From a virus: a DNA stretch of 32,125 nucleotides. The notes beneath the pieces were generated by a model. The model was given only the letters and a program-made list of their open reading frames with translations. It ran no database searches and was not told the DNA's origin. Position numbers and translations under genes: made by a program. Positions 7,134-31,866 of this stretch are shown piece after piece. The DNA lies in IMG/VR virus record IMGVR_UViG_3300037264_009892, positions 1 to 32,125 of that record; one strand, 5' to 3'. Positions within the stretch are counted from its first letter, which is position 1, and each line of letters opens with the position of its first letter.

Positions 7134-7853
7134 CTACTCCAGGATGATCGGGCACGCTCGCCTCCAATTGATCAAATCCTTCTCAAGTTGCTCCTTGGCC
7201 TCCTTGGCCTCTTCGAGCAGCCGTTCGCCGTTTAGGCTCTTGTCGCCGCCGACCATCGGAACGTTGTCCCACTTCGATCGGATTTCTCCTAGGAACTCTT
7301 TAGCCTGTGCCAACGCGTAACGGAGGAACAAGTTCTCGTCTTCAGGACCAAGGTCTCGCGTGTCGATGGTCTTCGTCCAGACGTTAACGAGCATGTTGCC
7401 GACGATCGATGGTCGCGGCATGATTAGAAGCTCGTGCGTGTCCTTGTTGTAGTCCCACTCCCGGTCGGCTGAGAATATCTTTTTCGACATGTTTAGGTAC
7501 TGAAGCCGTTGGATTAGATCGGAATAAGGGAGTGGAGACGCGCCGGGAGATCGCCACTGACCGAAGAGGAGTGAATAGGTGTAGCTGAAGTCATCGGTGT
7601 CTACGGCCGGAAAGTGGGCCGTGGGGAGATATACGGTAAGGACTTCAGTGACATCTGGGTCGAGAACGTAGACGTTGGTCGCGGTCGTAAGCGGAACCTG
7701 AAGAACTCGCTTTTGCCCAAGACGGAAACCAAACCATCGCTTGGTGTCGTTGATCACGTCTTGCTGCTGCAGCTCGGTGAGTTCTACGTCGACTATGCCA
7801 GCGCCGAGCCGACGAAGCACGTAAGCTTTGATCTCATCCTCTGTCATCGACAT
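7134..7853 (-). CDS. Putative neck protein, T4 gp13-like head-tail connector
   Basis: A 239-residue protein. The start, DEIKAYVLRRLGAGIVDVEL followed by TELQQQDVINDTKRWF, is the hallmark of the gp13-type neck proteins of T4-like myoviruses ('I...L.RLGAP...VELT..Q....I..A...F'). The end, KSLNGERLLEEAKEAKEQLE, matches their C-terminal 'G..L...G..E.E.L.EDL' helix. The middle carries VLDPDVTEVLTVYLP and a YSYLLF-type beta segment. It is followed 550 nt downstream by a gp14-like gene, the usual partner. It is the best supported head-tail gene of the window and argues for a contractile-tailed phage. Confidence 0.7.
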   Translation of the reverse strand: MSMTEDEIKAYVLRRLGAGIVDVELTELQQQDVINDTKRWFGFRLGQKRVLQVPLTTATNVYVLDPDVTEVLTVYLPTAHFPAVDTDDFSYTYSLLFGQWRSPGASPLPYSDLIQRLQYLNMSKKIFSADREWDYNKDTHELLIMPRPSIVGNMLVNVWTKTIDTRDLGPEDENLFLRYALAQAKEFLGEIRSKWDNVPMVGGDKSLNGERLLEEAKEAKEQLEKDLINWRRACPIILE

Positions 7854-7898: not shown

Positions 7899-8159
7899 CT
7901 AGATGCGCGCCAGGATATCAAGTACGGTGGCGCGCTCAAGCTCTTCGCGACGCGCGCGATGACGCGTTATTTGGCCGCGATCGTCTTCAACCTCAATCTG
8001 AACGCCGTAGTCTTTCCAGTCCTCGATGACCGTTCCGTGCAGCCGCTTCGTCTTCCACACGACTAGCGTGCCCTTGTCAAAGGGAGTCTTGTCTTCTTTC
8101 TTCTTTTCTGCCGGCCGGTCGTAGACGACTTCGCCGTAGCCGTGAGGATTGTTGGACAT
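7899..8159 (-). CDS. Small SH3-like protein with C-terminal LDxLA tag
   Basis: An 86-residue protein read from ATG 8159 (MSNNPHGYGEVVYDRP); the frame stays open upstream but into the hairpin-rich leader. After a Lys/Glu-rich linker comes a compact beta pattern, KGTLVVWKTKRLHGTVIEDW then GVQIEVEDDRGQ, as in SH3 or KOW-type barrels. It ends RATVLDILARI, the same C-terminal peptide seen on many small proteins of the right half of the window. It heads the leftward virion run, so the tag is not confined to the accessory block. Function unknown. Confidence 0.6.
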   Translation of the reverse strand: MSNNPHGYGEVVYDRPAEKKKEDKTPFDKGTLVVWKTKRLHGTVIEDWKDYGVQIEVEDDRGQITRHRARREELERATVLDILARI

Positions 8160-8216
8160 AGCTCGCTCCGCTCTACTATAGCGGATCCTCTGGCAGGGTG
8201 CATAGGTCGCGGCCAC

Positions 8217-8341
8217 AATGATGCTTGACCCGCCGAACCGACGGCGGGAGACCGTCAGAGTTCGATTGGGCCGCCCATGGTAGGCGGCCAATTCTTTCTG
8301 TAGCGTCTTGGCCTCTCTGATGCCACCATGGCAGGCATCAT
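8217..8341 (+). promoter_or_regulatory. Hairpin-rich leader upstream of the long fibre gene
   Basis: The 195-nt divergent spacer between the 8159 start (minus) and the 8355 start (plus) holds three consecutive inverted repeats: CCCGCC-GAACCGAC-GGCGGG (about 8230-8249), TTGGGCCGCC-CATGGTA-GGCGGCCAA followed by TTCTTTCT (about 8264-8300), and TGATGCC-ACCATGGCA-GGCATCA (about 8319-8341). The second could be a weak plus-strand terminator or attenuator. The last ends just before the GAGGTGA ribosome site of the fibre gene, so folding could affect its translation. A TATAGT box lies 15 nt before the minus-strand start at 8159. Confidence 0.45.
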
Positions 8342-8354
8342 GTGAGGTGAGCGC

Positions 8355-11300
8355 GTGGCCTTCATCGAGACATACCAAGTAATTTCATCAACACCGATCG
8401 TCGTTGACGACGGTGGAACCGCCATCAGCTACTCACCTGGTCAGACCTTCACCGCAGCAACCAGAAACACCTCAGTCATCCGACTCTTATCGCTTGGACA
8501 AATCGTCCTTCTGAGTGGTCCGATCCCCGCGCCTGAGCCGACGCCGCCAGGCGCTGCGAGTGGTTGGACTGACGATGGTCTGATCGTAAGGCTCACTACG
8601 GCTAGCGATAAGGTAGCCATTGGCGCAGCCACCATGATCGGATCTGAAAAGGTCCGAATTGTTGGTGACGCTCGAATTGAAGGCAAGCTAACCGTCACTG
8701 GGTTAATTGATCCGACCGGCCTCTATCTCGATGAACAGGTCGCTGATCAACCAGCAGTCGCTAATAAGGGTGTCTTCTACACCAAGGACGTTCTTGGCAT
8801 TACTCAGGCTTTCTACCGTGCAAGCAATGGCGCAGTCTCCCAAATCACACCCAGCGGCGGTGGTGAGACGCTCGCTCAGACACTCGTGCTCGGGAACACT
8901 ACTGGAGGCACGAACCTAGCCGTCACGAACGGTGATGCGATCCTGTTCGGGGCGGACGGTCGCCTCCGCCGTAACGCAGCCAGTTCTCTCGAGTTCGACG
9001 ACGGCGCGGGCGGGGCTTTGACGCAGTTCACGATCCGGGCGACCAAGACCACCATCACGGGGGCTCTCGATCCCACGAGCGTCTCCCTTTCGAGCGGGAC
9101 GGCGCTCTACTATGAGTCGGACGACGGGAGCACGGCGGCGGTCGCGCCCGCGAACAAGGGGCGAATCCGTTACCTGGACGGGACGGGGTGGCAGCTCTCA
9201 TCGAGCACGGGCGCTTACTCGACGGTCGCGACGTCGGCCTCAGGGTTCATCCAGAACGGCAACAGCTTCGGTGCGCTCGCGGTTCTCGGTACCAATGATG
9301 CCTTCGACCTAGCGTTTGAGACAAACAACGTTACGCGTTGGAGTATCTCGACGTCGGGTCATCTCATTCCATTCGTAGACAATCTCTACGACATCGGAAT
9401 CACGGCGACGAACCGTGTTCGTAACGGTTACTTCGGCACGTCAGTAGTCATCGGTGCCACCATCGCCATCGACGGCTCTAGCGTACAGCGAACGTCGGCG
9501 GGCACCGTCGCTCTGTTCACAGATGCCTTCTCGACTGCCATTACCATCGGAGGTGGAGCGACTCAGACTTCGGTCACGATTGGCGGCGGTGCTGCGTACA
9601 CAGGCGCGACCGTCGGAAAGGTAGGCGTGACCGACTCGTTCCTCGGTGCTGTTTCAGTCGGTGCAACCGTCACGATCGGGTCTGCCGCCGTCACTGGTTC
9701 GGCCGCGCTCTCAGTGACGGCAACAGCGGCAACGCTCACACTTGCAGCCACTGGTACCAACATCATCCAGCTTACGACCAATGCCGCTGCACGCTGGAAC
9801 GTCACCGGGTCAGGCCACTTCGTAGCGAATACCGATAACGCTCTCGACATCGGAGCGTCGGGCGCGACCAGACCGCGCACTGGATACTTCGGTACGAGTG
9901 TCGTCGTCGGTAGCACGGTCACCATCGGAACGGCAGCGGTCACGGGGTCCGGCGCTCTGGGCTTGACGGCTACCGGCGCGACGCTTGCGCTCGCCGCGAC
10001 GGGGGCGAACGCGATCACGCTCACGACGAACGGCACTGAGGCGTATCGGGTCAAGAGCGACTCCGCCCTCCAGTTTCCGACGAACACGACCTCCGCCGTC
10101 AGTGACGCCGCCACGGGCACTCTCCGCTACAACAACTCGGCGTCGGCCTTTCAGGTCTCTATCTCGGGCGGCGCGTGGACGAGTCTCGCGACGGGTACCG
10201 GCGGCACGAGCCTCGATGGCGCGTACGACTTTGGCGGTGCAGGCGCAGGACGCGCCATCACTGTTGACTCCGGCGCCGTCACGCTCACGAACAACGCGGC
10301 CAACAACAACAACGTGCTGGAGATCACGAAAAACCCGGCGGGCGCGCAGAGCGGCGATGCAATCAACGTGCTCATGGGAGCCACGACAACCGGCTACGGT
10401 CTCTCGGTCGATATCGCGACCGGAGGCTCCGGTGACGGCGCGCTGATCAAGTACACAGACCAGCACACTGGGATCTCGATGTGGCACAATTCGGCGGCAC
10501 CCGGCCTCACAACACTTCTCTCTAGAATCCAAACTTTTGGTGGAACAACGGGCGTGGGAGGGCCTTTTCAAACAGGGCTTCTAGATGTGCAGACCTCGGT
10601 TTCTTCAGACAATGCCGCCGGTTCATTTGTCTTTTGGACGAACTATTCATCTGGTGGCTCGCTCGCCCAACGTTTCTGCATGCAACATGAGGGCACATTC
10701 GGTCTTATTTCTGGAGCCTCAATCGCATGGACGGCTAGCGCAACGGACGCGAGACCCTACCAATCCACGCCGACGATTGCGCTTGCGAAGCATAACGGCG
10801 ACAACCTCAAGGTCTGGAACTACTCCTCCACCAACTACCTCATGCTCGGCCCGAGGGTGCAGGTCGCCGCCTCGACCGGTGGCTACTGGTTCTCACCGAA
10901 CTCCGACGCAACGAACAGCGCGCCGGACGCAACGATCTCCCGAAACGCAGCAAACATCGTTCAGATCGGAACGACGGGGAATAACGCGCTCGGCACTCTC
11001 ATGGCTACGAAGATCGTTGGCCCCGCTGCGAGCGCGCTCACCGTGGACGGGCCTACGACCCTCGATCTCCAGACGGGGGCGGTAACCCGTTGGCAGGTAA
11101 GCGCGGTGGGGCATCTCCTTCCTGCCGCCACCGACAACACAGAGGACATCGGTGCGTCCGCGACGAACAGGATCAGGACGCTCTACGCAGGCACGAGCGT
11201 GGTCGTGGGAAGCACCGTCACGGTCAGCACGGCAGCGGTCACCGGCAGCGGCGCTCTCACGGTCACGGCGACGGGAGCAGCGCTTACGCTCGCTGCAACC

Positions 11301-11657
11301 GGAGCGAACACCGTCGCGATCCACACCAACGGGTCGGCGCGGCTCACGCTCGCTGACACGACCGCGACTCTGGCCGACGCTGTAAACATCGCCGTCGGCA
11401 CGACTACTGGCACCCAAATCGCCACGGCCTCGACGCAAAAGCTCGGGTTCTGGGGCACGACGGCGGTAGTGCGTTCGGCGGTCGCCGCGCTCACGAACAA
11501 CGTCACGGCGGGCGGGACAACCGATACCATCGACAACTTCACAGACCTGACGACCTACGCGAACGACGCGGCGACGATCAGGAACAACATCTATCAACTC
11601 TCGCGGAAGCTCAAAGAGGCCGTGGATGCACTGCGGCTCTATGGCCTGCTTGGATAG
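8355..11657 (+). CDS. Long tail fibre protein with repeated beta modules
   Basis: A 1100-residue protein from GTG 8355 after GAGGTGA. Residues about 1-60 repeat the N-terminal domain of the collagen-like fibre (SSTPIVVDDGGTAISYSPGQ... RLLSLGQIVLLSG), probably the part that docks on the virion. The body is Thr/Ala/Gly-rich, with three copies of a module containing (T/A)RW.(I/V)S..GH then (Y/L/E)DIGA.ATNR.R..Y.GTSVV(I/V)G, near residues 330, 480 and 910. This module is common in environmental phage fibres. The last 40 residues (TYANDAATIRNNIYQLSRKL onward) are a trimer-type coiled coil. DNA around 10.48-10.74 kb is visibly less GC-rich than its flanks, suggesting module exchange. Confidence 0.8.
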   Translation: MAFIETYQVISSTPIVVDDGGTAISYSPGQTFTAATRNTSVIRLLSLGQIVLLSGPIPAPEPTPPGAASGWTDDGLIVRLTTASDKVAIGAATMIGSEKVRIVGDARIEGKLTVTGLIDPTGLYLDEQVADQPAVANKGVFYTKDVLGITQAFYRASNGAVSQITPSGGGETLAQTLVLGNTTGGTNLAVTNGDAILFGADGRLRRNAASSLEFDDGAGGALTQFTIRATKTTITGALDPTSVSLSSGTALYYESDDGSTAAVAPANKGRIRYLDGTGWQLSSSTGAYSTVATSASGFIQNGNSFGALAVLGTNDAFDLAFETNNVTRWSISTSGHLIPFVDNLYDIGITATNRVRNGYFGTSVVIGATIAIDGSSVQRTSAGTVALFTDAFSTAITIGGGATQTSVTIGGGAAYTGATVGKVGVTDSFLGAVSVGATVTIGSAAVTGSAALSVTATAATLTLAATGTNIIQLTTNAAARWNVTGSGHFVANTDNALDIGASGATRPRTGYFGTSVVVGSTVTIGTAAVTGSGALGLTATGATLALAATGANAITLTTNGTEAYRVKSDSALQFPTNTTSAVSDAATGTLRYNNSASAFQVSISGGAWTSLATGTGGTSLDGAYDFGGAGAGRAITVDSGAVTLTNNAANNNNVLEITKNPAGAQSGDAINVLMGATTTGYGLSVDIATGGSGDGALIKYTDQHTGISMWHNSAAPGLTTLLSRIQTFGGTTGVGGPFQTGLLDVQTSVSSDNAAGSFVFWTNYSSGGSLAQRFCMQHEGTFGLISGASIAWTASATDARPYQSTPTIALAKHNGDNLKVWNYSSTNYLMLGPRVQVAASTGGYWFSPNSDATNSAPDATISRNAANIVQIGTTGNNALGTLMATKIVGPAASALTVDGPTTLDLQTGAVTRWQVSAVGHLLPAATDNTEDIGASATNRIRTLYAGTSVVVGSTVTVSTAAVTGSGALTVTATGAALTLAATGANTVAIHTNGSARLTLADTTATLADAVNIAVGTTTGTQIATASTQKLGFWGTTAVVRSAVAALTNNVTAGGTTDTIDNFTDLTTYANDAATIRNNIYQLSRKLKEAVDALRLYGLLG

Positions 11658-11660: not shown

Positions 11661-11821
11661 CAGTTTGCCCTATAACTATTCCGCGATTCTGATATAACCA
11701 GCGCGGAAGTCTCGACCTACAACCACAGATGTGTGAGATACAAACAAACAACAATGCCTGCTGGAAGGCTTTGTATTCCAAGGTCTTATAACCTTTCGCC
11801 TTAGACTTTTAGGGAAAAGCC
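11661..11821 (+). mobile_element. Miniature inverted-repeat element, copy A (161 bp)
   Basis: A 161-bp non-coding element with ends CAGTTTGCCCTATAAC and, inverted, GGCTTTTCCCTAAAAG. It is flanked by 8-bp direct repeats GATAGGAG. It is about 85-90 percent identical by eye to copy B at 24514-24674, which has the same length. Inside are several short palindromes (CCGCG...CGCGG; TCTC...GAGA; ACAATGCC...GGCTTTGT; AAGGT...ACCTT), so it could fold as a compact RNA. No transposase is in the element or the window, so it must have been moved in trans. It sits exactly between the fibre stop codon and the next gene's ribosome site, harming neither. Confidence 0.75.
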
Positions 11822-13334: not shown

Positions 13335-13688
13335 ATGGCACGCTTCGTAGTCATGGTCGACGGAACGAGAATCGATAGCATCAGCTACCCGAAGGGCACT
13401 GTGGTCAATGTCCCTTCGTCGAACACCGACGTTCGCCTCGCTGGCCCACTCGGCTCGCCGCCGACGACCACGCCGCTCTACACGGTTCCGCGTCTGCGGA
13501 ACACGTCCGCGATCGGTGCTGGCTTCGTGGCACTGGACACGCTTCCCCCTTACCTCCCGGTTCTCGCTGGCGATCAGCTCGGTCGCCAAACCTCGACCGG
13601 CGCGCTTCCTCCGGGCAGCTCTGGTCCGAACACGGCCAACGTGATGCTGGAGCCGGTTCTCCCCACGGAGAACAGCCAGTACGACTAG
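13335..13688 (+). CDS. Hypothetical, probably well expressed small protein
   Basis: A 117-residue protein with a very strong ribosome site (GAGGAGGA), a good promoter and a strong terminator, so it is an independent unit that is likely highly expressed. The first half is beta-like (ARFVVMVDGTRIDSISYPKG, TVVNVPSSNTDVRLAGPLG) with a faint similarity to the N-terminal domain shared by the two fibres. The second half is Pro/Gly/Thr-rich (GALPPGSSGPNTANVMLEPV) and probably extended. A minor virion or decoration protein is a reasonable guess; the family is not recognised. Confidence 0.6.
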   Translation: MARFVVMVDGTRIDSISYPKGTVVNVPSSNTDVRLAGPLGSPPTTTPLYTVPRLRNTSAIGAGFVALDTLPPYLPVLAGDQLGRQTSTGALPPGSSGPNTANVMLEPVLPTENSQYD

Positions 13689-13721
13689 TTGTTCCCTTCA
13701 GCTCGACCAGGAAAACAGTCA

Positions 13722-13758
13722 AATAGGCGGACCCGCCGGGTCCGCCTATTTGTTTTTG
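13722..13758 (+). terminator. Rho-independent terminator
   Basis: A perfect 13-bp stem, AATAGGCGGACCC paired with GGGTCCGCCTATT around a GCC loop, followed by TGTTTTTG. It is placed 34 nt after the stop of the 13335-13688 gene and isolates it from the export operon downstream. Confidence 0.85.
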
Positions 13759-13920: not shown

Positions 13921-15111
13921 ATGGCAATCAGGCGTGGTTTGGCCCTTCTAGGGCTCCTTGTTGGACTTCTTTTCGGCGGCCAGACGATGGCTGCGCCACC
14001 CGGTAACGGAGTGGCGGCCGTCATCTCAATGGCGCCGTCGGCTGGCTATGTGGGTGACTTGGTTACGCTGGTGTGCTCTAACATTCGGGCACCGCTCCGG
14101 ATCGATTTCAACGGAATGGCGGCCGACGTCGCGTCAATAAAGACGAATGCGAACGGCGATCTCGATGTGCGAACCATCGTTCCCGCCAGAGCTAAGACCG
14201 GTCCGGTTCACATCTCGTCAATCGCTTCGGTGGTTTCGCTCAACGCCGGGACATTCACGGTGCTGGGTGGAGCGCGTGTATCTATTCCGTTGATGCCGAC
14301 CGACCCAGTCTGTGGAAGTCCGATCGGCGGGCGACCAGCGACAGGGCCTCCTTACGGCGGTCTGCCAGGCGCGCCTAGACCATCAGGGCCGGCAACCTTC
14401 GATCCTGATCTGGATCTACCTATCGAAGCCCCGCAACTGGTCTCCAAAACACCGACAAAAGCCCCTCTTCCTCCCAAGCCAGTTACTCCTCCACCAATAC
14501 CAGAGCTTCCACCCACGATCTACGGCAAGGATCTCAAGTCTGAGACAGGCTCGATCATTTACGTGATCGACATCTCTGGTTCGATGGGCTGGGACATCGG
14601 CCGTTACATAACGGCCGATGGCAAGGTTGCGACGGGGTGCCGACTTGATCGAGCCAAAGCCGAACTTACACGATCGGTCAAGAGTCTGCCCAAGAGCTTC
14701 AAATTCAACATCGAGTCCTACGATTGCTTGCGTTATGTCTGCTTCGTCGACTATTCCAATTCCCACATGCCTCTTCTTCCAGCAGATGAGGACCATAAGA
14801 AGAAAGCGATCGACTGGATCCAGGCGCTTCAGCCACAAGGCGCGACCGGTACCGGTCCTGCCGTCCTGGATGCGCTGGCTACCAGAGAGAACAGACTCAT
14901 CGTGCTCTTGACCGACGGAAGACCCAACTGCGGATCTCGTGATGAAGATGGTAGTTGGAACTGCATGATGGGCCATCTCTCACAGATTGACTGCGGTAAC
15001 GAACAGCGCGCAACCATTGACGTCTTCGGTATTGGCGCGACTGGTGAGTTCAAGCAATTTTGCCAAGATGTATCTAGCCACAACGGCGGATCTTACACCG
15101 ATGTTCGCTAG
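13921..15111 (+). CDS. Exported von Willebrand factor A domain protein
   Basis: A 396-residue protein; I chose ATG 13921 because AGGTGG lies 7 nt upstream, while GTG 13888 has no site. Residues 1-27 are a signal peptide (RRGLALLGLLVGLLFGGQTM then AAPP). Residues about 33-120 resemble an IPT/TIG Ig-like domain (SAGYVGDLVTLVCSN, VRTIVPARAKTGPVHISS). A Pro-rich linker covers about 130-205. The C-terminal VWA domain has IIYVIDISGSMGWD (MIDAS DxSxS), ATGTGPAVLDAL and RLIVLLTDGRPNCG. Several cysteines fit an oxidising compartment. It is translationally coupled to a HExxH lipoprotein. A surface adhesin or scaffold acting in the host envelope is inferred; finding it in a phage is unusual. Confidence 0.8.
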   Translation: MAIRRGLALLGLLVGLLFGGQTMAAPPGNGVAAVISMAPSAGYVGDLVTLVCSNIRAPLRIDFNGMAADVASIKTNANGDLDVRTIVPARAKTGPVHISSIASVVSLNAGTFTVLGGARVSIPLMPTDPVCGSPIGGRPATGPPYGGLPGAPRPSGPATFDPDLDLPIEAPQLVSKTPTKAPLPPKPVTPPPIPELPPTIYGKDLKSETGSIIYVIDISGSMGWDIGRYITADGKVATGCRLDRAKAELTRSVKSLPKSFKFNIESYDCLRYVCFVDYSNSHMPLLPADEDHKKKAIDWIQALQPQGATGTGPAVLDALATRENRLIVLLTDGRPNCGSRDEDGSWNCMMGHLSQIDCGNEQRATIDVFGIGATGEFKQFCQDVSSHNGGSYTDVR

Positions 15112-15601
15112 GGTCGCCTTTGGTCTCACCTATGGTGCCTCGATCGCGTGCGGCTTCATACTGGTGATGCTCCTCACCTTCGTTGGCTGCGGCCCGAACC
15201 AACCTCACGGTTACAAGGTCGGCAACGTCGAGGTCTTTATCACTGATCCGATGCCTCCCGAGACAATCAAACATATCTTCGAGGCTGTCGAGCTTCATAC
15301 GAGAACCTTTGAGTCGGATTTCAACTTTAGACTTCCGCCTACAAAGCTTTTCGTGCAGAGCCGTATTATCGACGCGTGTAACGGTGATTCTGGTTCTTAC
15401 GCTGGTTGCAACGGACTCGGTAACGGCATGATCAATGTATGGTCTGAAGATGATGGCGCGTGTCCGGCGCTCTATCACGAATACAGCCACACACTGTTTG
15501 GTCCGGGCCACCTAATCTGGGTTTGGTCATTTAACGACAAACGAGGTGCTGAGTTAACTGCTCGGCTCAGGGAAAAGTGGGCTGAGGAGAAAACACGATG
15601 A
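15101..15601 (+). CDS. HExxH lipoprotein, putative metallopeptidase
   Basis: A 166-residue protein from ATG 15101, overlapping the VWA gene end by 11 nt. The N-terminal hydrophobic segment (GFILVMLLTFVGC) ends in a lipobox-like cysteine at about residue 30. The mature part holds YHEYSHTLFGPGHL, a HExxH zinc motif with a further His nearby as possible third ligand. It is short for a peptidase, so catalysis is uncertain. The protein at 16138-16749 has the same plan (HEFCH, a W/K-rich end, cysteines before the motif) and is a likely paralogue. It probably acts at the outer face of a membrane. Confidence 0.65.
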   Translation: MFARVAFGLTYGASIACGFILVMLLTFVGCGPNQPHGYKVGNVEVFITDPMPPETIKHIFEAVELHTRTFESDFNFRLPPTKLFVQSRIIDACNGDSGSYAGCNGLGNGMINVWSEDDGACPALYHEYSHTLFGPGHLIWVWSFNDKRGAELTARLREKWAEEKTR

Positions 15602-15963
15602 GACGGCTACTCCTAACCCTGCTCGTAGTCGTAGTCGTAGTCGCAAACTTAAGCGGTTGTAACGGCAACCACGGGATGCAGGCGGCCTACCAGGTCACCA
15701 TTCCGTCTGCTGGGAACGTTCAGCCTTTCGACGTCTTGATCTACAACGGCACGCAGTGGCCACTCTACTTGAATTACCAAGGTCAAGGCTGGGTGATTCC
15801 AATAGGATCGACATTGGGTGTTCCAGTTGGATACCTGCCATCCAGCGTCGCAGTCGATGTCTATACCTATGCGACCCCCTCTTACCACTATCCAACGCAG
15901 ACCAAGACTTTAGGCGTCGACTATGCGTATACCGCCAACTCCGTCTCTTTCAGCTTCTATTAG
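15598..15963 (+). CDS. Small lipoprotein, beta-rich
   Basis: A 121-residue protein whose ATG overlaps the preceding stop as ATGA. It has a Lys/Arg start, a hydrophobic stretch (LLLTLLVVVVVVANLSGC) and a clean lipobox LSGC at residues about 18-21. The mature part is Tyr/Val/Pro-rich (VQPFDVLIYNGTQWPLYLNY, VAVDVYTYATPSYHYP), suggesting an Ig-like or pilin-like beta fold. The coding DNA for the hydrophobic stretch has a short GTAGTC tandem repeat. It likely works with the VWA and HExxH proteins at the cell surface. Confidence 0.65.
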   Translation: MRRLLLTLLVVVVVVANLSGCNGNHGMQAAYQVTIPSAGNVQPFDVLIYNGTQWPLYLNYQGQGWVIPIGSTLGVPVGYLPSSVAVDVYTYATPSYHYPTQTKTLGVDYAYTANSVSFSFY

Positions 15964-15964
15964 C

Positions 15965-16135
15965 ATGCGCAGCCACGTTGCATGTTCTTCGTGCGGCTTT
16001 ACGGTCATTCTTGCTACGGAGGCCACACGCAGCGCTGTTGTGGAGACGGATGGTCAATGTTGTCGGAACCGGTGCCCGCTCTGTCGTAACTACACTTTGA
16101 AACTTGCGGAGCGTAAAGAGCGGCGCTACCGCTAA
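15965..16135 (+). CDS. Tiny zinc-ribbon-like protein
   Basis: A 56-residue protein starting 1 nt after the stop of the lipoprotein gene, at ATG 15965. It has CSSCG near the start and CCRNRCPLC further on, then a basic tail ending ERKERRYR. Two CxxC pairs suggest a single zinc site. It ends 2 nt before the converging gene on the other strand. Being cytoplasmic, it may be a regulator of the operon or just a fourth linked gene. Confidence 0.5.
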   Translation: MRSHVACSSCGFTVILATEATRSAVVETDGQCCRNRCPLCRNYTLKLAERKERRYR

Positions 16136-16137
16136 CG

Positions 16138-16749
16138 CTAACGCCAAAACTTGATGATCTGCTCCGAGAGTTCCTTACCTCGTTGATTCCACTTATCCCA
16201 GCGCCTGTCTCTGTGGTCCGGTGTGCCGTCTAACTGGACGTGGCAGAACTCGTGGTAGAGGGACGGCAGGCTATCAGAGTCACCGGCAACAATTGCGATT
16301 TCGCTTGAGCCGCAGCACACACCAGTAATGTTGACAAATTGTCGCTTCGGCATCTGTGGCACGCCCGGTGGCATAGGTGGAAACCACAGAACACCCGTCT
16401 CCATCTGGAAGACTTCTTTGTCTGTGATGAAGATAAGGCACGGTCCCTGTAGCCGGCCGTAGTCGTGTTCAAATCCAGAATAGATGTAGCCGGTCGCATG
16501 TAGTAGCCGCCTGGCCCTATCGTCGTCGCAATCCGATGGCATTACGATCGTGTGTTCGTGAAGCTTGTACGCCTTGCCGCCAGGTTCCCACTGCTGACGC
16601 GCGAGCGTAGCACGCTCTTCTGAGGCTACTGGCTTAACCGTTGTGGCGATAAGTGTTACAGAATCACCGTGCTTAATAGCCGTAGCACATGCGACCAATG
16701 CGACACTGACTACAGCAACCAAGCCGATGACGCCTTGTCGATTAAGCAT
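16138..16749 (-). CDS. HExxH lipoprotein, paralogue of the 15101-15601 product
   Basis: A 203-residue protein. I chose ATG 16749 because AGGAG is 8 nt upstream. The signal LNRQGVIGLVAVVSVALVAC ends in lipobox LVAC. Later it has CLIFITDKEVF, GVCCGSSEIAIVAG and SLYHEFCHVQLDGTPDHRD, where HEFCH is the HExxH zinc motif and a following HRD could supply further ligands. The order of elements matches the plus-strand HExxH lipoprotein 500 bp away, though identity is low, so the pair probably arose by an old inverted duplication. The ribosome site lies in a hairpin loop. Confidence 0.65.
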   Translation of the reverse strand: MLNRQGVIGLVAVVSVALVACATAIKHGDSVTLIATTVKPVASEERATLARQQWEPGGKAYKLHEHTIVMPSDCDDDRARRLLHATGYIYSGFEHDYGRLQGPCLIFITDKEVFQMETGVLWFPPMPPGVPQMPKRQFVNITGVCCGSSEIAIVAGDSDSLPSLYHEFCHVQLDGTPDHRDRRWDKWNQRGKELSEQIIKFWR

Positions 16750-16882: not shown

Positions 16883-17374
16883 TCAGACCTGTGAAGCGTC
16901 ACTAATCGCGGCCAGAGCATCAAGGACTTCCGGTCGCCACCAGCCGTGCTGCTCAGCGTCGTAGCGTAGGATGCCAGCCGCCGTCAGACGCTTGAGAGAT
17001 AGCGCAAGCTGCAGCCGTTTAACGGTGCCTGTCGTCGGCACTTCTGCAGGCCGTTTCTCGGCAAAGCTCTCAACAGCACCCAGTATTCGCTCGAACGCGG
17101 CGACACGGCGCTTCGGTGCTGGATAGGAGCTACTTGCGGCAAGGTCTCCGATCCTTCCGGTCGAATAGAAGTCAGAGATGACCTTGCCGGTCTTGTATGG
17201 CCTAGGGAGTCCTTCGAACACGCTGGGATCGACGACGCTAGGAGTTACTTGAAGCGGAATGTATGGCGCGTAGATGAGACCCGGGTCCATCGTAGGCTGA
17301 AGCAGCTCATCGATGAGATCCGGAAGTAGGCCGTCCAGCCAGTCCTTCACGTCCTCGTTGAAGTAATTCTTCAT
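16883..17374 (-). CDS. Tagged protein with capsid-C-terminus-like segment and winged-helix-like part
   Basis: A 163-residue protein whose ATG overlaps the previous stop (ATGA). Residues about 28-55 read MDPGLIYAPYIPLQVTPSVV then DPSVF, resembling the 'YAPY.PL......DP..F.P' stretch near the C terminus of T4-like major capsid proteins. The second half (VKRLQLALSLKRLTAAGILR then RYDAEQHGWW) looks like a winged helix. It ends RPEVLDALAAISDASQV, carrying the shared LDxLA tag. No function is assigned; the capsid resemblance is by eye. Confidence 0.55.
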   Translation of the reverse strand: MKNYFNEDVKDWLDGLLPDLIDELLQPTMDPGLIYAPYIPLQVTPSVVDPSVFEGLPRPYKTGKVISDFYSTGRIGDLAASSSYPAPKRRVAAFERILGAVESFAEKRPAEVPTTGTVKRLQLALSLKRLTAAGILRYDAEQHGWWRPEVLDALAAISDASQV

Positions 17375-18071: not shown

Positions 18072-18758
18072 TCAGTCTTTTCGAAGCAGCATTCCTGCAG
18101 AGTGGATGACGTGCTCCCTTGCGCGCTCGCCACAAAGCGCTCCTAGAATGTTGTAGAGATTGAAGATAGTGGCTTCGCCGCTGCGCTTTCGTAGATCGAG
18201 CCGCTCCTGACCTGTGTAGTGGTCGGAGGCGACGCTTTCGGCGAGTGGAAGCATTTCTTTGAGCCGGTTTGCAAGCTCGTTGATGGCTCTGCTCTTCTCG
18301 TCAAGAATCAGGATGTCTTGCCACCTGACCTTGGCCGCCCCGAGCAATGGCCCGAATTCAGCGGCCAGTGCGGCGAAGACTTGCAGATTATCAGGCTTGA
18401 TGTGCCGGTTACCGACCATCATCTGAACAGCGCCGTTAGTGTCCGTGTTCGGACTGGCAAGTTTCGCGGCCACTTGCTCACTGGTCAGGACGTGGAAGGT
18501 TACACACCTAGCCACGGTTAACACATCCGTGTTCGTGGACTTCCAGCCAGTAATCGTAAACCCTACGGCCTCCATGACATGGAAGAGACGCAGAGAACTG
18601 TTTCCGACTGGTAGGTTGGTCTGCTTCACCCACCTACTAATCGCCTGATCATCACAGCCAATCAGCTCCGCCAGACGTCGACGTTGCGGAGTGTCGATGG
18701 CCCGAAGGTAGTCCTGAAGACACTCGTGAAATGTCCCTGTTCTCACCAGGCTACTCAC
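18072..18758 (-). CDS. HTH (XRE-like) DNA-binding protein
   Basis: A 228-residue protein from GTG 18758, overlapping the ATPase gene by 8 nt, with GGGAAG as ribosome site. Residues about 25-65 (QRRRLAELIGCDDQAISRWV, LPVGNSSLRLFHVMEAVGF) look like a lambda-repressor-type helix-turn-helix with its loop. The remaining 160 residues are helical with no recognisable enzyme motif (VFAALAAEFGPLLGAAKVRW). It is the second gene of a two-gene unit with a GHKL ATPase and is followed by a terminator. A regulator that reads a state set by the ATPase is an inference. Confidence 0.6.
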   Translation of the reverse strand: MSSLVRTGTFHECLQDYLRAIDTPQRRRLAELIGCDDQAISRWVKQTNLPVGNSSLRLFHVMEAVGFTITGWKSTNTDVLTVARCVTFHVLTSEQVAAKLASPNTDTNGAVQMMVGNRHIKPDNLQVFAALAAEFGPLLGAAKVRWQDILILDEKSRAINELANRLKEMLPLAESVASDHYTGQERLDLRKRSGEATIFNLYNILGALCGERAREHVIHSAGMLLRKD

Positions 18759-20574
18759 CCTTCCCGTCGGAGGCTTCGTCCTCTTGTTTACGCAGCCTGT
18801 TGTAAAACTGCCCGCGCTTGGTGAGCTTGTCGGCGTGCGTAATCAACGGAATCACATCCTGGATGCCCTGCTTGATCACGTCTTCGCGGTGGATGTAGCC
18901 ACCTGGATCGTCTTCGGCGAAATCGATCCAGGCCTCGTGCATGCGCAGCGCGCCGATGATGAGCCTCTCTTGAAGATCCATGAGGCATTTCTCACGGGCC
19001 GTCTCGTTTTGGTGCGCGCTCTCTACACCCGACCAGAGGTAGTGGTAGATGTTGATAGTGAGGATGCCTTTCTTCGGATCGAGGTCCCACATCCACGTCC
19101 CGTCGATGCGGCCAAAGGCGACGGCGAGGCCGAGGCTGTTATCCCTCACCAACTTTCGCGGATTCCCAGCCTTCGAGACGACGACGGTCGGTGAGTGCGC
19201 GGGTTTCTCCCTTTCAGGAGGCGTGCGCTTACTGCAGCTCTCGTCTTTCTTCTCAGGCCTCTTGTCGGTGAGGCCCGGTGTCCCATCGGTCGATGTGGCT
19301 GTGAGTTGCTCACCGGTCTCACGACCCGCATTGACATCGAAGTGACCAACGCCTGTGGAGCCGACCTTAAAGCGCCTCATCAGCTTTCCTAGATCGCTGT
19401 CCTTCTTGTAGAGGTGGTTGAGCAGCTTGAGCGAGCGCTTGCCAAGACGCTCGTAGCGCTCGTCCTTGGACTCATCCTCGATCTTGGCAATGTAGGGTTG
19501 CCCGATCTCGTTGATCCACTTCTGAATGCGCTCGCAAGCGTCGAGGAGCGCAACACTCTGGACCATGTTAAGCCGCGATGGATCCATCTGGACCTTCTGA
19601 TCGTCGAAGTTGATGATGCCTTCGAAGATGCCAGAGGTGAGCTTAGCCAGGGCGCTCTTCTCGATCGGGTCCTTAATCCCGCCGAAAACCTTGGCCGCCG
19701 TCTTCTCAGTCAGCAGTTGCCCTGAGTTGTTTCCGCACTTAACTCGAATGACGCCCTTGTAGGCTGGAACACGGCCCACAACCTTCGGCTTGGCGAGGTA
19801 AAGGCGGAGTTCGGTGCGGCCAGAAAGCTCACTCTCGTAGATCTTCACAGGAAGCGGCGAACCTGTGTAGTCGAGCGCCTCAATCTGCTTGGTGAGTTCA
19901 GAACCGTCGGCCTCAGTGATCTTGATGATCACCTTGGTCTTGTTGGGCTTCATGTGCTCGTTGTAGCGAGTTAGAATCCCGTCGCAGATCATGTCGAGGT
20001 CGAGGTTTGCACGGATTTTGTCGGTCTCGTACTTCTCGATCCTCAGCCTAGACCGCCACCACGGCTTCTCAGGGAGCCGAATCTCTTGCGTCGGAGCCTC
20101 CAGGTCGTTTTCGGCGGCCTTGAGTGCCGCTGTATCGAACGTCCATTCCAGCATCCCGTTCGAGCCATCGCGCGGCTCCGAAGCGAACAAGAAGCGTACA
20201 CACTTATCGAAGGAGGCGACGACACCAAGGCCGTATCTGCCAAGCTTGCCGAAGCGCTTCATGGAGTCTCCGACGCAGGAGAGGCACTCCTTGAAGTAAT
20301 CGTAGCTAGCTCCATCTCCATCATCGTGGATGTGGATACTGCGGACTTTCGGATCTTTGTTGATGGAGACAGTGATCTTCTTGGAGTTGGCGTCGATCGC
20401 GTTTTGAACCGCCTCGAAGATGGCCTCGTCGAGGTGCTGGTAGGTCTTGGCAAGGTAGCCCAAGACGTTCGCCTTGTGGAAGTCGATCTTGGTAGGCGGG
20501 TACTTAACCAGCTTGGTGGTGACGGGCGTCACCGCCTTCTGGGCGTTATCTCTGTTGCTTGCTGCGTGTGCCAT
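18751..20574 (-). CDS. GHKL ATPase (Hsp90/MORC-like)
   Basis: A 607-residue protein from ATG 20574 (MAHAASNRD), chosen because GAGAGG is upstream; a longer frame reaches 20622. All GHKL (Bergerat) motifs are present within residues about 45-120: N box EAIFEAVQNAIDA, G1 box IHIHDDGDGAS, and G2-like RFGKLGRYGLGVVASF. Middle beta-rich regions (about 200-330) resemble the transducer domain of MORC or Hsp90-like proteins. A low-complexity linker (about 400-450) precedes a C-terminal helical domain (LWSGVESAHQNETAREKCLM). It should bind and hydrolyse ATP as a clamp. The partner gene is the HTH protein downstream. Defence, anti-defence or chaperone roles are all open. Confidence 0.8.
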   Translation of the reverse strand: MAHAASNRDNAQKAVTPVTTKLVKYPPTKIDFHKANVLGYLAKTYQHLDEAIFEAVQNAIDANSKKITVSINKDPKVRSIHIHDDGDGASYDYFKECLSCVGDSMKRFGKLGRYGLGVVASFDKCVRFLFASEPRDGSNGMLEWTFDTAALKAAENDLEAPTQEIRLPEKPWWRSRLRIEKYETDKIRANLDLDMICDGILTRYNEHMKPNKTKVIIKITEADGSELTKQIEALDYTGSPLPVKIYESELSGRTELRLYLAKPKVVGRVPAYKGVIRVKCGNNSGQLLTEKTAAKVFGGIKDPIEKSALAKLTSGIFEGIINFDDQKVQMDPSRLNMVQSVALLDACERIQKWINEIGQPYIAKIEDESKDERYERLGKRSLKLLNHLYKKDSDLGKLMRRFKVGSTGVGHFDVNAGRETGEQLTATSTDGTPGLTDKRPEKKDESCSKRTPPEREKPAHSPTVVVSKAGNPRKLVRDNSLGLAVAFGRIDGTWMWDLDPKKGILTINIYHYLWSGVESAHQNETAREKCLMDLQERLIIGALRMHEAWIDFAEDDPGGYIHREDVIKQGIQDVIPLITHADKLTKRGQFYNRLRKQEDEASDGKGE

Positions 20575-20646
20575 GCTGTCCTCTCCGGTCTGGTGACCGC
20601 GATATTGACCTAGACTCGACATACCCGACTGTTGACGACTCCTGCG

Positions 20647-21061: not shown

Positions 21062-21463
21062 TTAGTCCAGGCCGAACTCACGGGCGAGTCGGTCTAAGAT
21101 CGGTTGAAGCTGTCTCTGTCTATGGCCATGATGTTCTAGCTCGAAGCACGGCTCGCAGAGCCATGTGCCCCGGTGGCCGCTGACATCAAGATCATCGTTG
21201 AGTATTGGTGCAGACTTGCATTGGTCGCAGACGATACCCTCGACGAGGCCAGGAATTTGGCCGTCAAACGCGGTCGGCGTTGAACATCGATCGCATGGCA
21301 TACCGACCCACGTAACGAAGTTCGAGTATTTACACTTCGGCGCAAGCTGCGTAGCGCAAGCCATGCAGATGAAGGCGTCGCCTATCAGCGCCTGATTATC
21401 TTTGCTGTCAACGTAAGACGGCCGGACCTCAACGGTCCGGCTACCACAACTGCCGCAGTGCAT
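21062..21463 (-). CDS. Multi-CxxC zinc protein with C-terminal LDxLA tag
   Basis: A 133-residue protein with AGGTG before ATG 21463. It has five or more cysteine pairs: HCGSCGS, FICMACATQ, MPCDRCSTP, IVCDQCKSA and WLCEPCFELEHHGH, enough for two or three zinc sites in a rubredoxin or HNH-like arrangement. No HNH catalytic pattern is convincing. It ends LQPILDRLAREFGLD, carrying the shared C-terminal peptide after a Gln/His-rich linker. Adaptor or nucleic-acid binding is likely. Confidence 0.6.
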   Translation of the reverse strand: MHCGSCGSRTVEVRPSYVDSKDNQALIGDAFICMACATQLAPKCKYSNFVTWVGMPCDRCSTPTAFDGQIPGLVEGIVCDQCKSAPILNDDLDVSGHRGTWLCEPCFELEHHGHRQRQLQPILDRLAREFGLD

Positions 21464-21530: not shown

Positions 21531-23186
21531 CTAATGCTTACCAGTGAGGTCCCAGCATCCCGCGTCGCGCATCGACCATTCGCCAGTCGAGCGGCGGACG
21601 CCCCAATTTTTCCAGTGCGCATCGCAGACGTAAAGACCTATATCCGCCATCGTGCGCATGTCATTTGCAATTCGCTTGAACTGCGTGTGACTTTCAGAGC
21701 CTAAGGCCGCGAAACTCGGTTCCATGTTAGCAAGGTGCTTATCGAGTCGGCCCCTAGCCTCTTCATGCGTCATACGTCCGGCCTCAATTTCGGCGGCCAG
21801 CGTGTGCGGAGTGTTTGTGCGGCTGCCATCGATACCCTCTCGACCAAGTCGACCAAGAAGTTTCGCGATTCGATACCCATCGGGAAGATCGTCAATATCG
21901 CTGAGGTCCTCACGGTGAATGACATAGATAGGAAGCCTCTCGTCTTTCGCCTTGATGCCGGGCAATACGTCGAGGTAGCGAGGTAGCGACGAGATTTTAT
22001 GAAGTTCTGGGTTGTTCTTGTAGAGCAGCGCCAGCCGCGCCTCGTTGTCGCCCTTGTCGAACTTGTAAACTGTCGGAGTCCCGTCTGGCTCCTTCTCGCC
22101 GCCGTAAACAACGCCGTTAATCTCTGCACCAAACGGTCGACAGTAAGGGTCGTTGATGGATTTCCCGTCTTTTCCGAAGACCCTGCGGCCGGCAGCATCC
22201 ATCTTTTTGGCAAGTTCAGCTACCGCATCGTAGTCCATGCCCTGGTCGTACGCATTGATGTAGTCCCAGTCGAACGACCCCTGTCGGTGACCAGCCTGCT
22301 TCGCAAGGGAGCCAGAGCCATCTACTGGTGCGCCGGCTCCATCGATCTTGGCGATGCCATAACGGGAGGGCGGTCCACCGGGAATGCGACGGCGCGGAGG
22401 TATCGCGAGCTTAAAAATAAACGCGGTCTTATCGTCGACCGGTGCGACTGGCGGCTTGGCCGGTGGTGCCGGTGGTGCCGGTGGTGCCGGTGGCTTCGGT
22501 TTAGGCGCAGCAACCGGTACCGGCCGTGCTGGCGGAGCGATGCCACCTACATTACCTGCACCGGCGCCACCGGCCGGCGGCTTCGGAGATCCAGAGGCTC
22601 CTGGTCGAGGGGCGCTGACATTGGCGCCGCCACCAACGCACGCGTCCTTACCAGCGTCCACTGCTTGTCCTGGCGGGCACTTGCCATTGTTGAAGCTAGG
22701 CTTTGCGTAATAGCCCTTGCCGTTGAAGCGATACTTGAAACTCGGGTCAAGCTTACGCGCCGGCTTACCTGGCGCCACCACTTCGCCGACGTGCAGATTC
22801 AAGGTGGCCGCATCGTTTTGGTGGAACGCGACTGGAACCATTGCCGCGCCGCGCTTGGAGGCGGCATGGTAAATGCCGGCATCTTGGAGAGACACTTCCG
22901 GCCGGCCGCCTTTGAAGGAGACCTTAGGCACCGGAATAACATCGCCGCGATCCATCGCGGCGTGGTGTTTGGCGGCCTCACGCTCAATGTCAGAAGTCGA
23001 ATGCTTAGCCGCGCCTTTGAGAAGGTCCTGGTGGTTCACGTAGTTAACGTGATGGTCCTCGTGGCCGTGGTCGCCATTAGGCGCGTGTTTCCAGGTCACA
23101 TTGCCGTAGCCGCCGTGCTCTTCTGCGCTCTCAAGCAGCTTTGTCAGGTCGCCGTATGGCGAGGTAAACCCGTTCCGGCTGAGCAT
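21531..23186 (-). CDS. Modular protein with kinase-like C-terminal domain
   Basis: A 551-residue protein with GAGGT before ATG 23186. The N-terminal ~130 residues are His-rich (HEDHHVNYVNHQDLL, then DAGIYHAASKRGAAMVPVAF), reminiscent of small domains fused to phage toxins. Residues about 175-255 are a cysteine pair and a Pro/Ala linker (PPAPPAPPAPPAKPP). The C-terminal ~280 residues fit an atypical kinase or phosphotransferase: VYKFDKGDNEARLALL (lysine, then Glu), IYVIHREDLSDIDDLP as hinge, CDAHWKNWGVR as the D....N catalytic loop and MRDAGCWDL in place of DFG. It probably phosphorylates or AMPylates something; it could be a virion-ejected effector. Confidence 0.6.
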   Translation of the reverse strand: MLSRNGFTSPYGDLTKLLESAEEHGGYGNVTWKHAPNGDHGHEDHHVNYVNHQDLLKGAAKHSTSDIEREAAKHHAAMDRGDVIPVPKVSFKGGRPEVSLQDAGIYHAASKRGAAMVPVAFHQNDAATLNLHVGEVVAPGKPARKLDPSFKYRFNGKGYYAKPSFNNGKCPPGQAVDAGKDACVGGGANVSAPRPGASGSPKPPAGGAGAGNVGGIAPPARPVPVAAPKPKPPAPPAPPAPPAKPPVAPVDDKTAFIFKLAIPPRRRIPGGPPSRYGIAKIDGAGAPVDGSGSLAKQAGHRQGSFDWDYINAYDQGMDYDAVAELAKKMDAAGRRVFGKDGKSINDPYCRPFGAEINGVVYGGEKEPDGTPTVYKFDKGDNEARLALLYKNNPELHKISSLPRYLDVLPGIKAKDERLPIYVIHREDLSDIDDLPDGYRIAKLLGRLGREGIDGSRTNTPHTLAAEIEAGRMTHEEARGRLDKHLANMEPSFAALGSESHTQFKRIANDMRTMADIGLYVCDAHWKNWGVRRSTGEWSMRDAGCWDLTGKH

Positions 23187-23365: not shown

Positions 23366-24046
23366 TTAGACCTCAAAGACCTGGATCGGATTAACCGGCT
23401 GATACCGTTCGTTGCACAATGATACGTTCACAAAAGTCGTTTCACCAAGTTTTTCTAAACCATAACTTTGATGTATGTGACCAAAGATGTGGAGCTTGGG
23501 CTTAATCTGTAGCACGCGATCTCGTAGGATTGGGCAACCGACTCGTCGCTCCTGCGGAGCCAGGTCGAGGATGTTGAGCGGCGGTCCGTGTGTGATGAGC
23601 ACGTTCACGTCGTCCGGAATCTTGGCCCAGACCCTCTTGGCCTCCTCGAAGCCGCTCACAGGATCAAGGCGGTTGAAATTGAAGGCCCAGTCCCAGAACC
23701 AGGGTTGCCAGGGTGACCCATAGAACTTCACACCGTCAATCTCACAGGCTGAGTCTTCAAGATAGACAGCCTCGATCGCGTGCTTCGCGGTCTTATGAAC
23801 TTCCGAGCAGTAGTGGAGCCAGTCGTGGTTCCCTGCGACGACAATTATCTTTTTGTAGCTCAACGACTTGAGGAATCGATTGAACGGGCCTTTGACCCAC
23901 TCAAGCTGCCTTCGGGCATCAGCTACCTCGCCGCCACCGCCAGGAAAGTTGGGCGCGTAGTCTCCGGCAATCACCAGCACATCACCATCTGGCATCTGCG
24001 CTTCGTTGAGCATCCCGTGGCAATCAGAAACCGCGACGACTCTCAA
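23366..24046 (-). CDS. Calcineurin-like metallophosphoesterase
   Basis: A 226-residue protein from TTG 24046 (AGGTAG upstream). All family motifs are present: VSDCHG (DxH), VIAGDYAPN (GD), VVAGNHDWL (GNHD), LITHGPP (H) and IFGHIHQSYG (GHxH). Length and spacing fit the small single-domain enzymes that hydrolyse phosphodiesters or phosphomonoesters with two metals. Phages carry related enzymes that act on 2',3'-cyclic phosphates or nucleotides; the substrate cannot be read from sequence. It follows the interrupted zinc-finger gene by 4 nt and may be co-expressed with it. Confidence 0.85.
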   Translation of the reverse strand: MRVVAVSDCHGMLNEAQMPDGDVLVIAGDYAPNFPGGGGEVADARRQLEWVKGPFNRFLKSLSYKKIIVVAGNHDWLHYCSEVHKTAKHAIEAVYLEDSACEIDGVKFYGSPWQPWFWDWAFNFNRLDPVSGFEEAKRVWAKIPDDVNVLITHGPPLNILDLAPQERRVGCPILRDRVLQIKPKLHIFGHIHQSYGLEKLGETTFVNVSLCNERYQPVNPIQVFEV

Positions 24047-30914: not shown

Positions 30915-30993
30915 GTCATGGTTCATTTAGTCTGACAGCACCCTACTTATTAGTTAGAGCCGCGCCTAGATTACTCGGCGGAAGGTGACTCAA

Positions 30994-31866
30994 ATGTCTT
31001 CCTTCGTTCGCATTAAGCGGCGTTCGATACCCGCCGCCATGTTGCTTGTTCCTCTGACGGCCGCTGCAACTGCTTTTACTGTAGCTTGTTACGAGAAGTT
31101 GGGATACGTCGAACAGAGCGTAATTCTTGTAAGCGTAGCAGCGACAACGACTCAGACATTGCCCGATCTACCAGGTGTGTTAGACAAAGACACGTCTTTC
31201 AGATTCATCAAGTCGATCGTGCAGATCCGGAGAATGGCCGCAAGTGGCTCAGGTGTCATTCTGCGGAGCGTGCTTGGCGCTGACCAGGTCTACCGGACCT
31301 ACATTCTTACGGCGGCGCACGTTGTCAACGATTCCAAGTTCGTCCAGGTTATTGATTTCGACTACATGTTCAGACTTAGTGTGGTGAGCCAGACATCTTA
31401 CGACGCTGAGGTCTTAGCGACATCGAAGGAACTTGATGTCGCTCTTGTCGAGATCAGGACTGAGCGTTCGTTGGGTCGATCTGTCGACCTCGTAACAGAA
31501 CGCGATCCGCGCAGCGTCAATCTCTACGACAACGTCTACGCGGTCGGTGGTCCTAGCCTGGAGCCGCCTAGCATCACAGATGGGCATCTGGCCGCGCTTG
31601 AGCGACTACGCCTCAGGTTCTCCGCTCCCGTAGCCGGCGGTGACTCTGGTGGCGCTGTTTTCCTGAGGGATGGCCGACTCATTGGGATCATCACCGGCTG
31701 CTTAGTGCAGCCAGGGCCGGGTGGTGTATCTGTTGTTTTTGCTCATCTGGCGATTGGAACACCGAGTCCGATTATCGCTACCTGGCTTCAGACTAGCGGC
31801 GCCGGCTTCTTGGTAGGCGATACTCGCAGCTCAGTTGAGTCCTTCGAACGGCGCCGCAAGTCATAG
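30994..31866 (+). CDS. Exported trypsin-like serine protease
   Basis: A 290-residue protein; ATG 30994 has AGGTGA 6 nt upstream (an earlier GTG at 30985 has none). A basic start and hydrophobic segment (AAMLLVPLTAAATAFTVAC) form a signal, possibly a lipobox at VAC. The catalytic triad is readable: His in ILTAAHVVND, Asp in ELDVALVEIR, Ser in VAGGDSGGAVF. The fold region (about 75-265) fits a DegP-type or trypsin chymotrypsin-like domain without a PDZ. It is the second plus-strand exported protein of the window and probably acts in the periplasm or on the surface. Confidence 0.85.
   Translation: MSSFVRIKRRSIPAAMLLVPLTAAATAFTVACYEKLGYVEQSVILVSVAATTTQTLPDLPGVLDKDTSFRFIKSIVQIRRMAASGSGVILRSVLGADQVYRTYILTAAHVVNDSKFVQVIDFDYMFRLSVVSQTSYDAEVLATSKELDVALVEIRTERSLGRSVDLVTERDPRSVNLYDNVYAVGGPSLEPPSITDGHLAALERLRLRFSAPVAGGDSGGAVFLRDGRLIGIITGCLVQPGPGGVSVVFAHLAIGTPSPIIATWLQTSGAGFLVGDTRSSVESFERRRKS

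What the first reader, a model, noticed from the sequence alone, without database searches (positions are those of the whole stretch)
13921..16749. Phage-borne surface module: VWA protein, two HExxH lipoproteins, a third lipoprotein
Four exported or lipid-anchored proteins sit in 2.8 kb of a phage genome, three in a translationally coupled operon. The two HExxH lipoproteins are paralogues on opposite strands. A VWA/TIG adhesin with metallopeptidase-like lipoproteins suggests remodelling of the infected cell surface: superinfection exclusion, altered predation or adhesion, or interaction with other cells. I do not know a described phage system of this make-up.
Basis: partly seen in the sequence, partly recalled or inferred. 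Interest (0 to 1): 0.62.

Follow-up and report, generated by a model that had tools for sequence, protein, structure and literature searches.

The report
Phage envelope-protein cluster beside fibre gene
A fragment of a very divergent large phage carries four neighbouring genes for proteins that look exported to the bacterial envelope, two of them protease-like lipoproteins, which probably change the infected cell's surface, but no relatives were found that would prove a function.

Summary
In 13921-16749 lie a Sec-exported VWA protein, two lipoprotein-type HExxH proteins (paralogous around the active site, opposite strands) and a small lipoprotein. Four of five genes with an export signal among 47 hand-picked genes sit here (permutation 0.0045). 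The VWA metal site is intact; the TIG claim is unsupported. The contig is a fragment of a large myovirus-like phage; its only relative found (47 kb fragment) lacks the module, and no homologue of any module protein was found, so the co-occurrence test could not be run. The HExxH proteins are not metzincins; they fit a minimal zincin pattern at motif level only. Because the unit lies directly downstream of a fibre-family gene, as T5 llp lies by its receptor-binding gene, I favour envelope remodelling for superinfection exclusion (about 0.35). Rivals: lysis aid (Listeria Mtz/Tim-like), secreted cargo, virion parts, counter-defence. A separate oddity may be more interesting: 13 of 47 genes share a C-terminal L[DE]x[LF]A motif, three of them starting with what look like pieces of capsid or polymerase genes.

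The parts
13335..13688 (+). Small fibre-family protein directly upstream of the module (117 aa); N-terminal domain related to that of fibre proteins of the window and of the sister phage
   Evidence: N-terminal 65 aa against sister L004 7512-8111: 0 of 2000 shuffles as good; against 8355-11657: 19 of 2000; against 3156-4637: 108 of 2000; against sister 8124-9512: 175 of 2000
13720..13752 (+). Intrinsic-terminator-like hairpin (15 pairs, T tail) separating the fibre gene from the module
13921..15111 (+). Exported VWA protein, 396 aa: signal peptide, N-terminal domain of unknown type, Pro-rich linker, VWA domain with MIDAS residues (D217-I-S-G-S, TGTG at 309, TDG at 331), 9 Cys
   Evidence: (VWA_3 E 4.2e-5, below its curated cut-off)
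15101..15601 (+). HExxH lipoprotein 1, 166 aa, lipobox at Cys30, HEYSH-x6-H, overlaps the VWA gene by 11 bases
15598..15963 (+). Small lipoprotein 3, 121 aa, lipobox LSGC at Cys21, ATGA overlap with HExxH-1, strong ribosome site
15965..16135 (+). 56-aa zinc-ribbon-like protein (CxxC...CxxC), no export signal, last gene of the plus-strand unit
   Evidence: only a weak DUF6510 match, E 0.012
16138..16749 (-). HExxH lipoprotein 2, 203 aa, lipobox at Cys21, HEFCH-x8-H, convergent with the operon
30985..31866 (+). Trypsin-like serine protease with N-terminal hydrophobic segment and weak lipobox; possible functional partner, 14 kb away
   Evidence: Pfam PF13365 E 7.4e-20; N-terminus

Best explanation
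An accessory (moron-like) transcription unit of a large phage that sends a set of proteins to the host envelope after infection. Shown: clustered export signals, intact VWA metal site, retained HExxH plus third His and Trp in two diverged paralogues, coupled genes, position directly downstream of a fibre-family gene behind a terminator-like hairpin. Inferred: the three lipoproteins sit on the outer membrane's periplasmic face or on the surface; the VWA protein binds an envelope target through its metal site; the HExxH proteins are small zinc proteases that cut an envelope protein, with lipoprotein 3 as partner, regulator or substrate. Most likely result: the phage's own receptor is inactivated, i.e. 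superinfection exclusion and protection of progeny from adsorbing to infected cells and debris.
For: 4 of the 5 signal-bearing genes among 47 are here, permutation 0.0045. HExxH, third His and Trp are kept in paralogues that are 24% identical overall. The fibre-family gene is immediately upstream with a terminator-like hairpin between. PMC9586334 (abstract and passages read): T5 Llp is adjacent to and downstream of the receptor-binding gene, and other exclusion lipoproteins were identified by lying directly downstream of gpJ. Cysteines: 9 in the VWA protein, 5 and 6 in the HExxH proteins, against 0.09-0.72% Cys in the large fibre, adaptor and neighbouring structural-type proteins; but the phosphoesterase at 23366-24046 has 2.21%, so this is weak.
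Against: No homologue, host, expression or activity data. The only related viral record found (G001, 47 kb fragment) lacks the module. Known exclusion lipoproteins are small binders, not proteases. The terminator-like hairpin means that the module is probably not cotranscribed with the fibre gene. The AlphaFold models are too poor to test the folds (mean pLDDT 47.9 and 35.9). The paralogues are similar only around the active site. Receptor binding by the upstream gene product is not shown, and it is the weakest member of its domain family.
Confidence: 0.35

Rival explanations
1. Lysis aid: the HExxH lipoprotein and the small lipoprotein encoded right after it form a protease-substrate or protease-inhibitor pair that weakens the envelope before lysis, as the phage-derived Listeria Mtz/Tim pair does.
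For: The protease-like gene is followed at once by a small lipoprotein gene (ATGA overlap). PMC8235301 (abstract and passages) describes a secreted metzincin followed by a lipoprotein gene without its own promoter; the pair increases sensitivity to phage lysis.
Against: Not metzincins (third His spacing wrong, no Met in the chains after the core). Here the protease is itself a lipoprotein, there are two of them and a VWA protein is added. A TIMP-like fold of lipoprotein 3 was not tested. The module is not next to a recognised lysis gene.
Confidence: 0.2
2. Secreted cargo acting outside the infected cell or on host fitness (adhesion, altered predation, aggregation), acquired from a bacterium.
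For: Codon match weaker than most reference genes (0.047, 0.044, -0.008, 0.057 against 0.052-0.197 for the 7 genes used as the reference). Distant similarity of the VWA domain to cellular surface VWA families (TIGR03788 E 2.6e-5, CglB family E 0.0092), far below the cut-offs.
Against: No bacterial homologue by the genome contigs pattern scans, which are insensitive. One fibre gene (0.052), the phosphoesterase (0.053) and the trypsin gene (0.005) have equally weak codon scores. A lytic phage would gain little from cargo acting after lysis (inference).
Confidence: 0.2
3. The proteins are incorporated in the virion or act in its assembly (tail-associated protease and binding proteins), the N-terminal hydrophobic segments being assembly or membrane signals.
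For: The module lies next to a fibre-family gene.
Against: Three separate lipoboxes and a signal peptide are not expected in cytoplasmically assembled tail proteins; none of the four has a PHROGs structural match.
Confidence: 0.1
4. Counter-defence: the exported protease-like proteins degrade envelope-located anti-phage proteins of the host.
For: Three protease-like proteins with export-type N-termini in one 32 kb fragment, counting the trypsin-like gene.
Against: No PADLOC-DB match for the four module proteins and no known target.
Confidence: 0.1

Closest known systems
T5 Llp and Cor-type superinfection exclusion lipoproteins
   Same: Small phage lipoprotein gene directly downstream of a receptor-binding or fibre-type gene
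   Different: No sequence match; here two protease-like lipoproteins and a VWA protein are added, and a terminator-like hairpin separates the unit from the fibre gene
Listeria Mtz/Tim (phage-derived secreted metzincin plus TIMP-like lipoprotein)
   Same: HExxH protein followed at once by a small lipoprotein
   Different: Not metzincin motifs; the protease-like protein is lipid-anchored and duplicated; a VWA protein is present; host unknown
SprT/YgjP-type minimal zinc proteins
   Same: HExxH, a third His 5-12 residues on, then an aromatic residue; strand before the helix in the low-confidence model
   Different: Exported lipoproteins; no Pfam match; hhalign single-comparison E 0.052 and 0.083
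Bacterial secreted VWA proteins (TIGR03788, CglB, PilY1/PilB-like)
   Same: Signal peptide and VWA domain with MIDAS
   Different: Scores far below the family cut-offs; only the VWA domain aligns

Membership tests
VWA domain | MIDAS residues DxSxS, Thr, TDG | tested here: met
   DISGS at 217, TGTG at 309, TDG at 331
VWA domain | Score over the curated Pfam cut-off | tested here: not met
   VWA_3 24.1 bits against 27; VWA_2 21.3 against 27; VWA 19 against 23.8
TIG/IPT domain | Pfam match in the N-terminal half | tested here: inconclusive
   0 families at E<=10 for residues 1-210; the fold was not testable, model pLDDT 35.9
Metzincin proteases | HExxHxxGxxH/D and Met-turn | tested here: not met
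   HEYSHTLFGPGH and HEFCHVQLDGTPDH; no Met after the core in either protein; motif definition from PMC8235301 passages
SprT/YgjP-type minimal zinc proteins | HExxH, third His, aromatic residue | tested here: met
   x6-H and x8-H, each followed by Trp; E. coli YggI (SprT) x12-H and YgjP x5-H for comparison; family signature as such is recalled
SprT/YgjP-type minimal zinc proteins | Profile similarity | tested here: inconclusive
   No Pfam hit of such a family at E<=10; hhalign E 0.052 and 0.083 for single comparisons
Llp/Cor exclusion lipoproteins | Phage lipoprotein gene next to a receptor-binding gene | tested here: inconclusive
   The upstream gene is of a fibre family, but receptor binding is not shown
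Llp/Cor exclusion lipoproteins | Blocks adsorption by binding the receptor | not testable with these tools
   needs an experiment
Mtz/Tim pair | Secreted metzincin next to a TIMP-like lipoprotein | tested here: not met
   the metzincin motif is absent (see above); the TIMP-like fold was not tested

The most novel reading that the evidence does not exclude
A large phage deploys a lipid-anchored proteolytic machine (VWA binding protein, two minimal zincin lipoproteins, a partner lipoprotein and perhaps the trypsin-like protein at 30985-31866) that destroys its own receptor or other envelope proteins after infection: superinfection exclusion by proteolysis instead of by blocking.
Probability: 0.15. 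Interest if true: 0.75.

Novelty: new variant of a known kind. Interest (0 to 1): 0.42.

Why it matters
The phage-encoded exclusion lipoproteins that I know of (Llp, Cor) are small binders. A phage unit that combines a metal-dependent binding protein with lipid-anchored protease-like proteins would add proteolysis to the means of superinfection exclusion or lysis control. The lack of any homologue also shows how little of large-phage accessory content is sampled.

Tried and rejected
Homologue searches that gave nothing: IMG/VR pattern scans with the VWA protein, both HExxH proteins singly, their alignment and lipoprotein 3; genome-contig scans with the VWA protein and the HExxH alignment (lipoprotein 3 was not scanned there); tblastn of the phage collection with the VWA and both HExxH proteins; lipoprotein 3 gave only two hits of E about 7 to a fibre of one phage held in two records; tblastn of plasmids with the VWA protein only; PHROGs, NCBIfam and PADLOC gave no family over a cut-off or, for PHROGs and PADLOC, no significant match. 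The pattern scans need near-exact 7-9 residue words, so they find close relatives only.

Relatives of the phage: adaptor 7134-7853 found one IMG/VR record; the ATPase 18751-20622 found none there. The module is absent from that 47 kb fragment; the record is incomplete, so this does not show absence from that phage.

Structure: two AlphaFold jobs of low confidence. Foldseek and VIA-align on the HExxH model gave nothing usable (best E 0.26; best Z 4.2, rmsd 4.0, 80 aligned). No zincin was among the rows listed, which with such a model says nothing.

Rejected: metzincin membership (motif not met); VWA as a lipoprotein (no lipobox); the contig as a non-phage element (fibre and adaptor genes). A possible shared motif GCGTTAACTAATGCGG near both ends of the module: the 16-base form occurs once; the looser TAACTAATNGCG has 11 sites with up to 2 mismatches against 4.5 expected but in mixed orientations; not pursued.

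Papers: 8 searches were answered; the term sets returned 0 papers. I make no claim that such a module is unpublished beyond these searches. For PMC10892097 I saw two passages only (a VWA domain-containing protein and an SPFH/band 7 family lipoprotein in a table for a Vi01-like phage).

Full report
What was checked. The window is a 32,125-base virus record from a very divergent phage. A collagen-like tail fibre and a head-tail adaptor are recognisable; the adaptor matches 30 phage records, at 25-29% identity for the 25 listed, mostly large phages such as PA5oct (287 kb) and RaK2 (346 kb). Megablast of the first 25 kb finds nothing among 50,697 phage records. One IMG/VR record, a 47 kb fragment, carries an adaptor that is 58% identical.

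Anatomy. The fibre-family gene 13335-13688 ends before a strong terminator-like hairpin at 13720-13752. Then follow VWA 13921-15111, HExxH-1 15101-15601, lipoprotein 3 15598-15963 and a 56-aa zinc-ribbon-like gene 15965-16135, all on the plus strand with overlaps of 11 and 4 bases and a 1-base gap. HExxH-2, 16138-16749 on the minus strand, converges on them. Ribosome sites are good for VWA, lipoprotein 3 and HExxH-2, poor for HExxH-1, which fits coupling (read by eye).

More than chance? Codon scores support the annotated frame over all five others for VWA, HExxH-1, lipoprotein 3 and HExxH-2; for the 56-aa gene one other frame scores higher. Of 47 hand-picked genes 5 have a strongly hydrophobic N-terminus, 4 of them here; a cluster this tight occurs in 0.0045 of random placements. 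The count depends on start choice: with mechanical longest ORFs, 5 of 54 pass, 3 of them in the module, since HExxH-1 is hidden by an upstream start and one antisense ORF enters.

The proteins. The VWA domain has its metal site and weak Pfam support (VWA_3 E 4.2e-5, below cut-off). The first 210 residues match nothing, so 'TIG' and 'adhesin' are unsupported. The two HExxH proteins are paralogous in the last 56 residues (E 3e-7); masking the LYHExxH core leaves a similarity reached by 70 of 2000 shuffles, and upstream of the core there is none (383 of 2000). Both keep HExxH, a third His at x6 or x8, and a Trp five residues later. This is not the metzincin motif. E. coli YggI (SprT) and YgjP, translated here, show x12 and x5; hhalign single-comparison E-values are 0.052 and 0.083, which is a lead and no more. 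The AlphaFold models are of low confidence and fold searches were uninformative.

Homologues. None was found for any of the four proteins (list in Tried and rejected).

Function. Position is the best clue. The N-terminal 65 residues of the upstream gene product resemble those of a fibre-like protein of the sister phage (0 of 2000 shuffles) and less strongly those of the large window protein 8355-11657 (19 of 2000), while two other comparisons are weak (108 and 175 of 2000). The two large window proteins and the two sister proteins are clearly related to each other in this domain (0 of 2000 in all six comparisons). In T5 the exclusion lipoprotein gene llp lies adjacent to and downstream of the receptor-binding gene, and other exclusion lipoproteins were spotted downstream of gpJ (PMC9586334, abstract and passages). 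Against this, known exclusion lipoproteins are not proteases, and the hairpin separates the transcription units. The closest protease precedent is the phage-derived Listeria Mtz/Tim pair, which promotes phage lysis (PMC8235301, abstract and passages); gene order agrees, motif and anchoring do not. I therefore give superinfection exclusion by envelope remodelling 0.35, lysis aid 0.2, secreted cargo 0.2, virion part 0.1 and counter-defence 0.1.

Side finding. 13 of the 47 genes hold L[DE]x[LF]A within the last 26 residues. Among all mechanical ORFs of 50 aa or more the motif is C-terminal in 13 of 229, all 13 on the minus strand, with 1.6 expected from its rate elsewhere. With greedy non-overlapping ORFs it is 10 of 54. 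The stretches of the sister phage (L004, L005, L003), PA5oct and RaK2 held here have none at a C-terminus: 0 of 29, 22, 18, 30 and 38 ORFs. Three carriers begin with what look like pieces of core phage genes: capsid gp23 positions 4-80 (E 4.3e-5) and 312-337 (5.9e-4), and DNA polymerase A positions 200-232 (6.4e-5), all below the families' cut-offs; tblastn agrees weakly for the capsid pieces (best capsid E 0.01 and 3).

Noticed in passing
7899-8378, 16883-17374, 21062-21463, 24796-25347, 26239-26607, 26525-26755, 26752-27051, 27002-27265, 27262-27558, 27854-28102, 28139-28480, 28577-29008, 29452-29730 (all -): 13 of 47 genes share a C-terminal L[DE]x[LF]A motif although the proteins look different (SH3-like, winged-helix-like and zinc-ribbon-like by eye); 13 of 229 mechanical ORFs, all on the minus strand, against 1.6 expected. 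None in the sister, PA5oct or RaK2 stretches held. Possible shared docking, targeting or degradation tag.
   Followed up: partly
24796-25347 (-), 16883-17374 (-), 28139-28480 (-): Three small proteins with that C-terminal motif start with what look like pieces of core genes: capsid gp23 N-part, capsid gp23 C-part and a DNA polymerase A segment (positions 200-232) (all weak scores). Chimeric decoys, regulators or gene remnants.
   Followed up: partly
11664-11821 and 24517-24674: A 158-base non-coding element in two copies 90% identical, with complementary ends (CTTTGCCCTA / TAGGGCAAAG in the second copy); no Rfam match there. The one copy folded is only slightly more stable than shuffles (z -1.65). 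One arm seems to recur inverted near 12240 (seen by eye).
   Followed up: partly
30985-31866 (+): Trypsin-like protease with hydrophobic N-terminus and a weak lipobox-like site (TVAC): a further possibly exported protease outside the module.
   Followed up: partly
3156-4637 (-), 8355-11657 (+), 13335-13688 (+), and L004 7512-8111, 8124-9512: A shared N-terminal domain of about 65 residues on fibre-like proteins of this phage and its sister, possibly the virion attachment domain (the 13335 member is the weakest).
   Followed up: yes
21531-23186 (-): The C-terminal half reads like a protein-kinase-type fold (DxHxxN ... DAG, seen by eye); Pfam gives only an unrelated weak CVNH match, E 0.21.
   Followed up: no
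18751-20622 (-) and 23366-24046 (-): A GHKL-type ATPase (PF13589 E 3.8e-15; weak MzaB match E 0.0002) and a metallophosphoesterase matching PADLOC PDC-S10 (E 5.1e-72).
   Followed up: no
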